Positions 36 to 3,911 of a DNA stretch of 64,000 nt are shown here, one piece after another. The translations under genes were made by a program, and so were the position numbers. The notes below the pieces were generated by a model. That model saw only the letters and a program-made list of their open reading frames with translations. It was not told the origin of the DNA and ran no database searches. The stretch lies in contig NZ_QXFL01000003.1 of the NCBI RefSeq assembly GCF_003584125.1, positions 310,001 through 374,000 of the forward strand, in the 5' to 3' direction. The first letter of the stretch is position 1; every line of letters begins with the position of its first letter. The stretch comes from Aurantiacibacter zhengii. Lineage in GTDB: Bacteria > Pseudomonadota > Alphaproteobacteria > Sphingomonadales > Sphingomonadaceae.

Positions 36-737
36 TCACGCGGCTTCCGTTTCCTCGACCGCATCGGGATCGCGCAGCACGTAGCCGCGACCCCAGACCG
101 TCTCGATGTAGTTCTCGCCGCCGCATGCGCTGGAAAGCTTCTTGCGCAGCTTGCAGATGAACACGTCGATGATCTTCAGTTCGGGCTCGTCCATGCCGCC
201 GTAGAGGTGGTTGAGGAACATTTCCTTCGTCAGCGTGGTGCCCTTGCGCAAGCTGAGCAGTTCCAGCATCGCGTATTCCTTGCCGGTCAGGTGAACGCGC
301 GCACCGTCCACTTCCACGGTCTTCGCATCGAGGTTCACGGCCAGCTTGCCGGTGCGGATGATCGACTGGCTGTGGCCCTTCGAACGACGCACCACGGCGT
401 GGATGCGGGCAACCAGCTCGTCACGGTGGAACGGCTTGGTCACGTAGTCGTCGGCGCCGAAGCCGAACGAGCGGATCTTGCTGTCCATCTCGGCAATGCC
501 GGAGAGAATCAGCACCGGCGTCTGCACCTTGGCGACGCGCAGCTTCTTCAGCACGTCATAACCGTGCATGTCGGGCAGGTTCAGATCGAGCAGGATGATA
601 TCGTAATCGTACAGCTTGCCCAGATCGAGACCTTCCTCGCCCAGGTCGGTCTGATAGACGTTGAACCCTTCGGTCGTGAGCATGAGCTCGATCGCCTTGG
701 CAGTTGTCGGCTCGTCTTCGATAAGCAGAACGCGCAT
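36..737 (-). CDS. ctrA: Cell-cycle response regulator CtrA
   Basis: OmpR-type response regulator of 233 aa. The receiver domain fills about residues 1-115, with the acidic pair E7/D8, phospho-acceptor D51 in LLDLNLP and K102-like lysine in the VTKPF motif. The winged-helix DNA-binding domain fills about 125-225 ([10 protein letters not shown], then [12 protein letters not shown]). The unbroken LILSGI and [25 protein letters not shown] segments are those of CtrA, the alphaproteobacterial master regulator of replication and cell division. Length equals the usual 231-239 aa. It is a single gene with a long upstream non-coding region containing a GAGTC (CcrM-type) site. Very sure of the identity. 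Confidence 0.97.
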
Positions 738-859
738 CTTTCGTACCCCTTAGTGTCCCCGCGGGCCTGAACCCGTTCGCGGTGTAGCCCGTTATTAACC
801 ACGCAATTTCTCACCGAAAAAGGTTAACAAAGCGTTTCGCGCGTTAAGACTTTCTGGGT

Positions 860-864
860 GAGTC
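860..864. promoter_or_regulatory. GANTC (CcrM-type) site upstream of ctrA
   Basis: GAGTC lies about 123 bases upstream of the ctrA start. In Caulobacter a GANTC in the ctrA P1 promoter ties transcription to the methylation state; the equivalent role here is inference from position alone. Confidence 0.35.
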
Positions 865-956
865 ATTTGGGTGACAGTGTTTTTTGAAGCCTCAAGCGCC
901 GGCGGTCGCGTCCGCTCCCTTGGCTTTCCTCGCTTCCGGGCAGGCGAGCTGCCCAC

Positions 957-996
957 GCTGCGGGCGGCCGTTCGGCCTTGCACTCGCTTCGCTCGC
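957..996. repeat. Dispersed GC-rich repeat, copy 1
   Basis: The core GCTGCGGGCGGCCGTTCGGC followed by CTTGC recurs with one inserted G and one substitution at 28,828-28,853, also between genes. Both copies are followed by runs of CGC/GCG. This looks like a dispersed intergenic element, and only two copies are visible here. Confidence 0.4.
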
Positions 997-1298
997 GTTC
1001 GGGGCCACTGGTCGTTTGGGCGGCGCTTGTTAAGAGGTTTGTGGCAAGGTCTTAACATCGTGGTTCCAACTAACCTGGAACACATGGAACAATGTCCAGG
1101 AGGAAAAAACCGGGATTGTGTAACCCTGGGCGCCGGAAGTGTGACCTTGCGGGCGGAAATGTGTCACTTTCACTGAGATCGAGTTGCGAGTGGTTGAGAG
1201 GCTGGGTCATGACGGAGTGAGAGGCACGGAACGGGGCTTGTAGGGAAGGGAGAGAGCCTCGACGCGCAGCGCCATGTTCCTTTACCAATCACCACCTC

Positions 1299-1325
1299 CG
1301 CTCAGCCTGAGCTTGTTGAAGGCCA
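1299..1325. repeat. REP-like palindromic element
   Basis: GCTCAGCCTGAGC is a near-palindrome followed by TTGTTGAAGG. Read on the minus strand it is CCTTCAACAAGCTCAGGCTG, a variant of the CTTCGACAAGCTCAGG-type REP sequence scattered between genes in many proteobacteria. Single copy in this window. Confidence 0.45.
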
Positions 1326-1348
1326 CGCGCTGACGCTAGCCAGACCCG

Positions 1349-1495
1349 ATGGACTTCCAAGCCTACCTCCTGCGCTGCAACGATGGCAGCTACTACGCAG
1401 GCCACACCGACAATCTGGACGTCCGCATCGGCCAGCACGGCAGCGGAACTTTCGTGGGTTTATCAGACGTCGCTTTTACCTCAGTCTTGGTTTGA
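1349..1495 (+). pseudogene. Broken GIY-YIG nuclease remnant
   Basis: Starts with ATG and encodes a 48-residue frame. Its first ~33 residues (AYLLRCNDGSYYAGHTDNLD, then VRIGQH) match the N-terminal core of single-domain GIY-YIG nucleases of the UPF0213 type, which are normally 80-100 aa. The Tyr pairs and the YAGHT segment of the catalytic core are present. Family resemblance is lost after the GSGTF residues and a stop follows at 1493. A fragment reading WFEKL in another frame just downstream may be part of the lost middle. GC content drops sharply at the point where homology ends, so the gene seems to have been cut by acquired DNA or a rearrangement. Confidence 0.6.
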
Positions 1496-1563
1496 AAAGT
1501 TGCTATGGAGTCAAAAGCGAGGCAATCTGCATATGTCATATCGAACTTTAGGTGGAGGTGAAA

Positions 1564-1707
1564 ATGTCGAACCAGAACTCTGACAAGAATGACCGCATAG
1601 AAAAAAGCTATCAGCCAAGAACTCCATCGAGAGATGACGAGGCTTCATACAACCCCAAAACCCCTGGCGATGTAACGCCAGCGCCAACTCCGCCGAAAAA
1701 GGGCTGA
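1564..1707 (+). CDS. Tiny YxP-motif protein 1, ends PPKKG
   Basis: Encodes 47 aa behind an excellent ribosome-binding site (GGAGGTG, 3 bases before ATG). The protein is polar and disordered-looking, with SYQPRTP, then SYNPKTPG, then a proline-rich tail TPAPTPPKKG. From memory the repeated [G/S]Y-x-P signature and PP-rich tail resemble a widespread, uncharacterised family of 40-60 aa proteins; this was not checked. GC is about 45 percent against about 65 percent in flanking genes. A second protein with the same ending starts 2 bases after its stop. Function unknown. Confidence 0.6.
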   Translation: MSNQNSDKNDRIEKSYQPRTPSRDDEASYNPKTPGDVTPAPTPPKKG

Positions 1708-1709
1708 GA

Positions 1710-1820
1710 ATGGGAAATTCGGGTCCTCCATCGCCGCCTCATTACATTCCGGACAGTGTGCAACCTAAGGTGCCCCCTCCCCCTGCAAAGCCTGCGCCCT
1801 CTCCCCCGAAGAAGGGATAG
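1710..1820 (+). CDS. Tiny YxP-motif protein 2, ends PPKKG
   Basis: Encodes 36 aa starting 2 bases after the previous stop, so translation is probably coupled. It has HYIPDSV near the middle and a tail of prolines ending SPPKKG, the same final five residues (PPKKG) as the preceding protein. Its last 56 bases overlap the 3' end of the membrane protein gene on the other strand. Too short for firm gene calling, but the shared C-terminus in a different codon context supports it. Confidence 0.5.
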   Translation: MGNSGPPSPPHYIPDSVQPKVPPPPAKPAPSPPKKG

Positions 1821-2427
1821 GAGAACTATGCCGCAAATCAACGCGGCGAATGCTTGATGCGGGAATGTAAGTTATCCTTGATCCGAAATAATCTACTTCA
1901 ATCTCCTCTGCGTCAAAGTCCTCGCCGTCGCTGGTTGTGGAGTTTGTGACGTAAAGTGCAATGTCTCCATCCTTGCCAATCACTGCCGGTCCGAAAGGGG
2001 ATTCGGCAAATCTACGAGTATCGATGCAGCGTAACCAGCTTCCGTCTGTTAATTCGATGCTGATTTGGCTTAAAGGATAGCGTGAATTGCAGACTGTTAG
2101 TGTCTGCCATGCGGTCGGTACATCGTCTGACCATGAAATGTCAGTTTTCTTCATTAGCCATCTGAATATGGGAATTCCAAATCGGCGCCAAAGTCCTCCT
2201 GATATTATAGCTCCAATGGATGCAGTAAGCAGAATTAGCCAGCGAGGAGAACCCGCCATTGCAGCCGCAATGGCAGTGGCGACAAGCCCAAAACCTAGGG
2301 ACCTGAACGTTATCTCTACGGCGCCATGATGGTCGCGTTGTCCAGCATAAGCGACAAGGTAGGCAGCATAACCGCTCGCAAGTGCCAGTTGTATTTGCCA
2401 TGGCAACGATAAGAATTCATTAGACAT
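1765..2427 (-). CDS. Membrane protein of a low-GC mini-island, unknown function
   Basis: Encodes 220 aa; the ATG at 2427 was chosen because membrane segments begin right after it and the frame upstream belongs to rpoN. Hydrophobic segments lie at about residues 14-30, 45-62 and 66-85, followed by RRFGIPIFRWLMKK and a soluble domain (about 95-205) starting ISWSDDVPTAW. The order (membrane part, then a domain with SxxDDVPxAW and LTDGSWLRC) is reminiscent of DUF6338-like proteins, but I cannot confirm that. The gene is about 45 percent GC, ends 5 bases from rpoN and converges on the two tiny PPKKG genes. Confidence 0.65.
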   Translation of the reverse strand: MSNEFLSLPWQIQLALASGYAAYLVAYAGQRDHHGAVEITFRSLGFGLVATAIAAAMAGSPRWLILLTASIGAIISGGLWRRFGIPIFRWLMKKTDISWSDDVPTAWQTLTVCNSRYPLSQISIELTDGSWLRCIDTRRFAESPFGPAVIGKDGDIALYVTNSTTSDGEDFDAEEIEVDYFGSRITYIPASSIRRVDLRHSSPIPSSGERAQALQGEGAP

Positions 2428-2432
2428 TGCTC

Positions 2433-3911
2433 TCACCCCATCCCGGCCAGCTTCTTCGCCCGCCGCCGCTGCACGGAGGAGCCAATTCCGATAGCCTCGC
2501 GGTATTTCGCCACCGTGCGCCGCGCCAGGTCGAAGCCTTCGCCTTTCAGCAGTTCCACCAGCTTGTCGTCGGACAGGATCTTCTTCGGGTCCTCGGCATC
2601 GCACAGCGCCTTGATGCGGGCCTTCACGGCTTCCGCGCTTGCACCTTCTCCGTCGGTGCCGCCGCCAACCCCGCTGGTGAAGAAATACTTCAGTTCGAAG
2701 GTGCCGCGTTCGCAATGCAGGAACTTGTTGCTGGTGACACGCGACACCGTGCTCTCGTGCATCTCGATCGCCTCGGCCACGGTCCTCAGCGTCAGCGGGC
2801 GCAGTTCGGATACGCCGCGCTTGAAGAAGCCGTGCTGCTGTTTTACGATTTCAGCGGCAACTTTCAGAATGGTCTTCTGGCGCTGGTCCAGCGCCTTTAT
2901 CAGCCAGTTGGCATCGGCCAGCTTCTCGCTCAGCCAGCCTTTCGCTTCCTTGTTCGTCGCGCCGGCGCGAAGTTCGACGTAGTAGCTGCGGTTCACCACC
3001 AGGCGGGGCAGGGTCTCTTCATTAAGCTGGATATCCCAGCCCTCGTTCCCTTCCGCATCGGTGACGCCTTTCAGCAGCACGTCGGGCACGACAGACGTGC
3101 TGGGGGAGCCGCCGAATTTCAGGCCCGGCTTGGGATCGTAACCGCGCAGTTCGGACAGCATCTCGGCGAAGTCCTCGTCATCGACGCTGCAAATGCGCTT
3201 CAGGTGCGCGACCGCGCCCTTGGCGACGAGTTCGAGGTTGTCGATCAGCACTTCCATGCACGGATCGTAGCGGTCGGCTTCTTTCGCCTGCAGCGCGAGG
3301 CATTCGGAAAGCGAGCGCGCGCCCACGCCGGTGGGGTCTAGCGACTGGACCACGTGCAGGGCTTCCTCGACGCTGGCCTGGGGGACAGCCAGGTTCGCGG
3401 CAATGTCCGACAGGGGCGTGGAGAGGTAGCCTGCCTCGTCTAGCAAGCCGATGATGTGGCGGGCGATGAATTCGGTGACGGCATCGGGTGATGCAGGGCC
3501 GACCTGCGTCTCGAGGTGGTCAGCGAGCGAGAGGTCATCGCTGCTGCGGTTCTCGAGGTCCGGCGCTTCGCCCACTCCGCCTGCGCCCGAATGCTCGGCG
3601 GACCAGTCCCCGGTATCGCGGTCCACATCAAGAGCGCCGGGGTCGATATCCAGCGCCTCGTCGCCGTTGCCCCCTCCATCCATATCTGGCGTGGCGTCGT
3701 GGATGTCGGGCTGGTCGCTTTCGGGCGAGGCTTCGCGGTCTTCGGCGCGCACTTCGCCCGCTTCCAGCAGCGGGTTTGCCTCCAGCGCTTCGCCGACGAA
3801 GGTCTCGATCTCGAGATTGGACAGCGCCAGCAGCTTGATCGCCTGCTGCAGCTGCGGCGTCATCACCAGCGATTGCGATTGCCTGAGGTCTAGTCTTGGC
3901 CCCAGAGCCAT
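2433..3911 (-). CDS. rpoN: RNA polymerase sigma-54 factor RpoN
   Basis: Sigma54 of 492 aa. The N-terminal region I is Gln/Leu-rich (LRQSQSLVMTPQLQQAIKLL), followed by an acidic linker (about 55-130), the core-binding domain, a helix-turn-helix (RTVAEAIEMHESTVSRVTSN) and, near residue 465, the diagnostic RpoN box ARRTVAKYRE. It recognises -24/-12 promoters and needs AAA+ activators. It lies 38 bases downstream of lptB on the same strand, the usual lptB-rpoN order. Two sigma54-like promoter sequences are described elsewhere in this window. Confidence 0.97.
   Translation of the reverse strand: MALGPRLDLRQSQSLVMTPQLQQAIKLLALSNLEIETFVGEALEANPLLEAGEVRAEDREASPESDQPDIHDATPDMDGGGNGDEALDIDPGALDVDRDTGDWSAEHSGAGGVGEAPDLENRSSDDLSLADHLETQVGPASPDAVTEFIARHIIGLLDEAGYLSTPLSDIAANLAVPQASVEEALHVVQSLDPTGVGARSLSECLALQAKEADRYDPCMEVLIDNLELVAKGAVAHLKRICSVDDEDFAEMLSELRGYDPKPGLKFGGSPSTSVVPDVLLKGVTDAEGNEGWDIQLNEETLPRLVVNRSYYVELRAGATNKEAKGWLSEKLADANWLIKALDQRQKTILKVAAEIVKQQHGFFKRGVSELRPLTLRTVAEAIEMHESTVSRVTSNKFLHCERGTFELKYFFTSGVGGGTDGEGASAEAVKARIKALCDAEDPKKILSDDKLVELLKGEGFDLARRTVAKYREAIGIGSSVQRRRAKKLAGMG

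What the first reader, a model, noticed from the sequence alone, without database searches (positions are those of the whole stretch)
1442..2430. Low-GC mini-island between a broken GIY-YIG gene and rpoN
GC falls to roughly 38-53 percent here (my counts on sample 60-base lines: 45, 38, 53, 40, 47) while flanking genes run at about 65 percent. The left edge coincides with the point where GIY-YIG homology stops; the right edge is 5 bases from the rpoN stop. Inside are two tiny proteins and a membrane protein with no recognised function. This is the pattern expected of a small acquired cassette that replaced the end of a chromosomal gene.
Basis: partly seen in the sequence, partly recalled or inferred. 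Interest (0 to 1): 0.75.

Follow-up and report, generated by a model that had tools for sequence, protein, structure and literature searches.

The report
Membrane protein with tiny proline-rich partners
A small foreign gene cassette beside rpoN carries a membrane protein predicted to end in an RNA-protein-like (Sm) barrel plus two tiny proline-rich proteins; the same pairing recurs in phages and plasmids of other bacteria and has no known job.

Summary
1442-2430 has GC 0.4975 against a window mean of 0.633; of all 989-base windows only four, starting at 1445-1448, are lower. None of 39 other same-genus genomes has its membrane gene.

It is not just debris. The minus-strand gene (1765-2427) belongs to PHROG_12870. 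Its model has three helices and an Sm/LSm-like C-terminal barrel (no match below E 0.001). The two plus-strand ORFs (1564-1707, 1710-1820) run into its 3' end. In homologous loci a convergent proline-tailed small ORF sits there in 18 of 23, against 6 of 106 control ORFs. Five loci found later all met the rule; four convince by eye. The small ORFs share a short motif and show pN/pS 0.26. Homologs occur beside phage head/tail genes and on plasmids. DUF6338 looks like a distant, co-directional version; a Pseudomonas stutzeri case is in print.

Best guess: a phage/plasmid 'moron', a membrane Sm platform bound by disordered partners, perhaps for phage exclusion. Binding and function are inferred.

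The parts
36..737 (-). ctrA-like response regulator gene, left border of the variable interval
   Evidence: ORF; at least 96% identical in 37 of 40 same-genus genomes, own included; gene name from recall and sequence reading
1349..1495 (+). truncated GIY-YIG gene; DNA homology to the intact copy ends at about 1419, protein similarity fades by about 1447
   Evidence: Pfam PF01541 residues 6-33; intact copy in G568
1564..1707 (+). tiny proline-rich protein 1, 47 aa, with ...IEKSYQPRTP...ASYNPKTP...PPKKG; GGAGG-type ribosome site just upstream
1710..1820 (+). tiny proline-rich protein 2, 36 aa, with HYIPDSVQPK...PPKKG; starts 2 bases after the stop of protein 1; no strong ribosome-site word seen
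   Evidence: a YIPD-type protein occupies the same 3'-overlapping place in several other loci
1765..1820 (.). 56-base overlap of the converging 3' ends
1765..2427 (-). PHROG_12870 membrane protein, 220 aa: predicted helices 10-26, 36-56, 62-94 and Sm/LSm-like beta domain about 106-200
2433..3911 (-). rpoN; its stop is 5 bases before the ATG of the membrane gene

Best explanation
An accessory module from the phage/plasmid gene pool has landed in the variable rpoN-ctrA interval. Component A (1765-2427) is an inner-membrane protein with three helices and a cytosolic Sm/LSm-like barrel. Components B1 and B2 (1564-1707, 1710-1820) are tiny, basic, probably disordered proteins with a short motif around S/N/G-x-x-P and a PPxKK-type tail. 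Proposed working: A forms a ring or patch at the membrane; the B proteins dock on the Sm domain through motif and tail, and this sets A's assembly or the state of its membrane part. Temperate phages and plasmids carry the module as a moron, most likely to shield their host cell from other phages. Shown: gene pairing, arrangement, selection, shared motif, mobility. Predicted: topology and Sm fold. Inferred: docking, ring, gating, phage exclusion. My odds: real two-component unit 0.9; A and B bind each other 0.6; phage exclusion/defence 0.3.
For: Pairing: 18 of 23 loci against 6 of 106 control ORFs, Fisher p 8e-13 (five of the 18, L006, L070, L077, L082, L083, are one related group). Loci found later: 5 of 5 by the rule, 4 convincing. 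Motif S.QP in 21 of 35 tiny proteins, shuffled mean 2.0, maximum 8 in 1000 shuffles. Pooled pN/pS 0.26 over 15 pairs. Similarity of A and of its nearest B rises together (Mantel r 0.64, 0 of 2000 permutations, 16 loci), as expected of a unit inherited together. Fold: the listed PDB matches are nearly all Sm/LSm or spliceosomal snRNP chains; a separately aligned DUF6338 model gives the same, and one of ten DUF6338 members hits Pfam SM-ATX at E 0.003. Mobility: phage head, packaging or tail genes in 10 of the 13 phage-like loci whose neighbours I scanned (L057, L058, L065-L068, L118, L120-L122; not L069, L071, L123); plasmids. Expression of a cousin: three proline-rich small proteins predicted in an operon with a DUF6338 gene were detected as proteins in P. 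stutzeri (PMC10433244, passages read).
Against: No Foldseek PDB match reached E 0.001 (best 9.7e-3 for the window protein, 1.3e-3 for DUF6338). Four members scanned against Pfam gave no LSM-family hit. Three of 23 loci (L058, L059, L060) show no partner by my filters. The motif was chosen after looking; S.QP is absent from all 7 DUF6338 partners, and the broader forms exceed no shuffle maximum there. Eleven of the 13 scanned phage-like loci come from a viral collection, so phage neighbours are expected there; L057 and L058 do not. The window copy has no phage neighbour that I recognised. No complex could be modelled. No defence-library hit. Phage exclusion rests on location alone. The ribosome-site signal is modest (24 of 42 against 30% in shuffles).
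Confidence: 0.4

Rival explanations
1. Toxin-antitoxin-like pair: the membrane protein harms the cell when unrestrained, and the tiny proteins (or their antisense transcripts, which overlap its 3' end) hold it in check.
For: Small mobile pair on plasmids and prophages; three-helix part weakly resembles phage holins (all holin rows at E above 0.04); converging 3' ends that overlap in most loci with a partner.
Against: Up to five tiny genes per locus is unusual for an antitoxin (recalled); the distant DUF6338 pairs are co-directional, so antisense is not general; the three window proteins hit no toxin-antitoxin family.
Confidence: 0.2
2. Membrane-tethered RNA-binding Sm protein: the ring binds RNA, perhaps the overlapping transcripts themselves, and the tiny proteins modulate it.
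For: Sm/LSm-like fold in two separate models; SM-ATX hit at E 0.003 in one DUF6338 member; 3' overlap in most loci with a partner.
Against: I did not look for a conserved RNA element; Sm-like barrels occur in proteins that do not bind RNA (recalled: MscS middle domain); DUF6338 pairs do not converge.
Confidence: 0.15
3. The tiny proteins are exported or antimicrobial proline-rich peptides and the membrane protein gives immunity or export.
For: Basic, proline-rich, about 45 aa (mean net charge +4.6 over 35); the P. stutzeri authors mention antimicrobial roles as a possibility.
Against: Few hydrophobic residues (mean fraction 0.12), so no obvious signal stretch; no signal-peptide program was run; linkage to phage head genes suggests an intracellular role.
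Confidence: 0.08
4. The tiny ORFs are chance reading frames opposite a GC-rich gene end; the cassette is decaying foreign DNA.
For: Overlap with the membrane gene could create proline codons by complementarity; the neighbouring GIY-YIG gene is broken; the control rate is not zero (6 of 106).
Against: 18 of 23 against 6 of 106; tiny genes beyond the overlap recur in arrays; pN/pS 0.26; shared motif.
Confidence: 0.05

Closest known systems
PHROG_12870 (viral protein family, function unknown)
   Same: The window protein and all 19 other members of A4 match it; window E 3.8e-58 over residues 3-201.
   Different: The library gives no function; six tiny partner proteins tried had no PHROG hit.
DUF6338 (PF19865) with small proline-rich proteins, e.g. 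Pseudomonas stutzeri Pstu14405_12030 operon
   Same: Profile similarity to the window family (prob 94%, E 1.4e-7, 120 columns); three long helices plus an Sm-like domain in the model; a small proline-containing ORF just downstream in 9 of 11 loci against 5 of 25 control ORFs; proteins detected in P. stutzeri.
   Different: Partner is co-directional, not convergent; the S.QP motif is absent there (0 of 7); the window protein is not a Pfam DUF6338 hit.
Sm/LSm proteins (spliceosomal Sm and Lsm4, archaeal SmAP)
   Same: Predicted fold of the C-terminal domain by Foldseek.
   Different: Membrane-anchored; no LSM-family sequence hit in the four window-family members scanned; ring formation and RNA binding untested.
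MscS-type channels (recalled)
   Same: Three helices followed by an Sm-like beta domain (recalled architecture).
   Different: No MscS hit in Pfam for four members or among the 50 listed PDB matches.

Membership tests
PHROG_12870 | Profile match over nearly the whole length | tested here: met
   E 3.8e-58, profile 4-204 of 210; 20 of 20 members of A4 match
DUF6338 (PF19865) | Pfam score above the curated cut-off | tested here: not met
   No hit for the window protein or three relatives at E up to 10; no match in the window genome
DUF6338 (PF19865) | Distant homology by profile comparison | tested here: met
   hhalign prob 94%, E 1.4e-7, 120 columns (window residues 11-132: helices and first strands)
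DUF6338 (PF19865) | Small proline-rich gene at the 3' end, same strand | tested here: not met
   Partner present but on the opposite strand; co-directional in DUF6338 loci
Sm/LSm | Bent five-strand barrel fold | tested here: inconclusive
   Prediction only: the 50 listed PDB matches are nearly all Sm/LSm or snRNP chains (many rows name only the complex; one is AvrPphB), Foldseek prob 1.00 for the top rows but best E 9.7e-3, SpLsm4 TM 0.77 by target length
Sm/LSm | Sequence profile (Pfam LSM) | tested here: not met
   No LSM hit at E up to 10 in four members, with HMMER's filters on; one DUF6338 member hits SM-ATX at E 0.003
Sm/LSm | Ring assembly and RNA binding | not testable with these tools
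   No complex modelling or bench work available
Known anti-phage defence systems (PADLOC) | Match to a library model | tested here: not met
   0 families at E up to 1 for the three window proteins
Prophage moron | Accessory gene between phage structural genes | tested here: inconclusive
   Met for homologs: head, packaging or tail genes nearby in 10 of 13 loci scanned. For the window copy no phage gene was recognised in the ORFs of the first 6 kb (read by eye, not scanned)

The most novel reading that the evidence does not exclude
A bacterial and phage system in which a membrane-anchored Sm-fold ring is controlled by arrays of tiny disordered proteins carrying short linear motifs, spread widely under the unconnected labels PHROG_12870 and DUF6338 and used by mobile elements to guard or manipulate the host membrane.
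Probability: 0.3. Interest if true: 0.82.

Novelty: new variant of a known kind. Interest (0 to 1): 0.62.

Why it matters
Two unconnected 'unknown function' labels, PHROG_12870 and DUF6338, appear to be distant parts of one superfamily with a shared plan: three membrane helices, an Sm-like barrel and a tiny proline-rich partner gene at the 3' end. That gives testable partners for a family hit in 19 of 299 genomes drawn from the phylum (15 over the cut-off) and for phage morons. A search for 'DUF6338' over the held library found one paper; it reports expressed proline-rich small proteins and found them only in its own species. If the Sm domain binds the short motifs, it would be a bacterial case of motif reading by an LSm-type domain on a membrane.

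Tried and rejected
Single-protein scans of viral contigs and genome contigs with the window protein, and of viral contigs with the L057 protein, found no relatives; a four-member alignment (A3) did. The first suspicion that the membrane protein is a DUF6338 member failed by Pfam but survived as distant homology. A similarity of the YIP-type motifs to insect proline-rich antimicrobial peptides is recalled only and was not pursued. A search of viral contigs for [YF]IPDNARP found four stretches: one is the known locus, in L112 the motif lies in a 761-aa frame, in L114 in a 62-aa frame without proline tail, and L115 gave no reading. No repeats at both cassette edges were found; integrases were not searched for by profile. 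Weak hits L004, L005, L012 and the IS-truncated Rhizobium copy (L007) were left out of counts.

Rows dropped before counting. L007 (truncated), L064 (gene at the record end), L075 (same contig as L009), L076 (protein identical to L070), L078-L080 (protein identical to L077) and L084 (partial, near-identical), L085 (34-residue fragment), and shorter copies of the same loci. The 106 control ORFs are mechanical ORFs of at least 180 aa, not all certain genes. In one search L057 and L067 count as misses although a partner is visible by eye; 35 tiny proteins were picked by me; left out were those of L009, L078-L080, L082-L084; 15 pairs picked as orthologous; in those nearest the membrane gene the overlap also constrains codons; the L091 hit looks spurious, while L094 and L096, counted as misses, have candidates; L047, L087, L088, L097, L098 and weaker hits were not used. 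L124 ends at its stop codon and could not show a partner; L125 (fragment) was not given to the call; L116, L117, L119, L126, L127 are known loci again.

Full report
What was checked. The stretch 1442-2430 has GC 0.4975; sampled windows of that size average 0.633 (sd 0.028), and of all 63012 such windows only the four starting at 1445-1448 are lower. The membrane gene has GC3 0.457, while the median of 36 long mechanical ORFs is 0.758. The genes are as described, with one addition: the membrane gene (1765-2427, minus) runs towards the two tiny plus-strand ORFs (1564-1707, 1710-1820) and overlaps the second by 56 bases. Its ATG lies 5 bases after the rpoN stop on the same strand, so it may be transcribed with rpoN (inference).

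The site. I searched 40 same-genus genomes (own included). RpoN is found in 39; a ctrA-like match is found in 40, but only 37 have one of at least 96% identity. Of the 39 genomes with rpoN coordinates, 34 have both genes on one contig and strand; the interval ranges from 154 to 9163 bases and is 1699 in the window genome. The membrane gene is in none of the other 39 genomes. The closest relative by RpoN, G486 (96%), has a LysR-like gene next to rpoN instead (name from sequence reading). G568 (91%) has an intact 94-aa GIY-YIG gene in the interval, convergent to rpoN, whose start is 95% identical to the window fragment. Stretches of up to 1.5 kb downstream of rpoN were examined for 30 genomes including the window's; besides the window only G568 showed a GIY-YIG frame by the pattern used. 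The truncation is therefore real, but the whole interval is a hot spot and no scar of one insertion was found.

The membrane protein. Pfam, NCBIfam and PADLOC give nothing above cut-off. All 20 members of alignment A4 match PHROG_12870, of unknown function. AlphaFold2 with 19 sequences gives mean pLDDT 87.6, pTM 0.62, helices 10-26, 36-56 and 62-94 and a beta domain. Foldseek against the PDB lists almost only Sm/LSm or snRNP chains among the first 50 (many rows name only the complex), best E 9.7e-3, none below 0.001. Against viral models the best is an uncharacterised Siphoviridae protein (E 4.2e-5); holins follow at E above 0.04. A DUF6338 protein modelled from a separate alignment of ten (pLDDT 76.5, pTM 0.52) also lists Sm/LSm or spliceosomal chains, best E 1.3e-3, and one of ten DUF6338 members hits Pfam SM-ATX at E 0.003. 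The two families align with probability 94%.

The partners. In homologous loci I asked for a small ORF on the opposite strand ending near the membrane gene's stop, with at least three prolines in the last 12 residues and a K/R near the end. 18 of 23 loci have one; 6 of 106 other long ORFs in the same loci do. The 18 include one related group of five (L006, L070, L077, L082, L083). Arrays of up to five occur (L006, L070). Five loci found afterwards and with enough sequence all met the rule; four look convincing, L118 does not. The motif S.QP occurs in 21 of 35 tiny proteins against a shuffled mean of 2.0 and maximum of 8; the looser [KNGRDE][SNG][YFWHVQSAIT].P in 28 of 35 against a mean of 7.4 and maximum of 16. 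The narrower [SNG]Y.P is not beyond the shuffles in that set (5 of 35, maximum 5) but occurs in 3 of the 4 new ones (shuffle maximum 2). In seven DUF6338 partners S.QP is absent and broader forms (5 of 7) do not exceed the shuffle maxima. The motifs were chosen after reading the sequences. pN/pS is 0.26 pooled over 15 pairs. Ribosome-site words occur in 24 of 42 against 30% in shuffles.

Spread and company. With the window protein or small alignments as query, matches at E 0.001 were found in 5 of 298 family genomes (two clear besides the window, two weak), 4 of 396 order genomes (one weak, G540) and 4 of 385 class genomes, each count including the window genome. Phage head, packaging or tail genes lie near the homolog in L057, L058, L065-L068, L118 and L120-L122, 10 of 13 phage-like loci scanned; the proteins scanned in L069, L071 and L123 were repressor, partition or methyltransferase genes only. 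Eleven of the 13 come from a viral collection, so this is expected there; L057 and L058 come from bacterial genomes. A small plasmid carries it with five tiny genes (L006); the protein is identical in contigs of Alexandriicola, Thioclava, Fluviibacterium and Sulfitobacter. Truncated or distant copies follow a caspase-helicase gene (L007) and a subtilase-AAA pair (L059).

DUF6338 pairs. In 11 loci, 9 have a small proline-containing ORF directly downstream on the same strand, against 5 of 25 control ORFs, p 8e-4. Several carry GYQP-type repeats. In P. stutzeri three such proteins were detected by mass spectrometry, predicted in an operon with a DUF6338 gene, and the authors found them only in that species (PMC10433244; I read passages only).

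Literature. 'DUF6338' occurs in one held paper. Three further searches on proline-rich small proteins, prophage morons and Sm-like membrane proteins listed nothing that I could see names this pair (listings of 10, 2 and 12 papers, titles and abstract beginnings only).

Interpretation. Shown: a recurring, mobile, selected gene pair with shared motifs. Predicted: topology and fold. Inferred: that the Sm domain reads the motifs, forms a ring, and that carriers use it for phage exclusion. Precedents for LSm domains binding short motifs (Edc3/Scd6), for MscS having an Sm-like domain and for two-gene prophage exclusion (RexAB) are recalled, not looked up.

Noticed in passing
L064 (PP438431.1, 'Synechococcus phage Ssp-JY41'): This deposited phage genome has RepA-like, ParA and Txe/YoeB toxin genes, no structural gene named, and matches plasmids of Rhodobacteraceae with MobQ relaxase and replication initiator A over up to 53% at 92% identity; it looks like a plasmid, not a phage.
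   Followed up: partly
L007 2878-6339: A caspase-domain plus DEAD-helicase fusion (Pfam Peptidase_C14, DEAD) directly upstream of an IS3-truncated homolog on a Rhizobium plasmid.
   Followed up: partly
L059 3834-7951: An AAA ATPase and a subtilase gene upstream of a distant homolog without visible tiny partner.
   Followed up: partly
window 738-2432: The interval between ctrA and rpoN is hypervariable in the genus, 154 to 9163 bases in 34 genomes.
   Followed up: partly
window 1301-1330 and 957-997: A short sequence (CTCAGCCTGAGCTTGT...) occurs twice downstream of rpoN in L019, and 957-997 matches the corresponding interval of L035; possibly dispersed repeats.
   Followed up: no
L077, L078, L079, L080, L064: The PHROG_12870 protein (247 aa) is identical in contigs of four Rhodobacteraceae genera and in L064, suggesting recent plasmid transfer.
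   Followed up: partly
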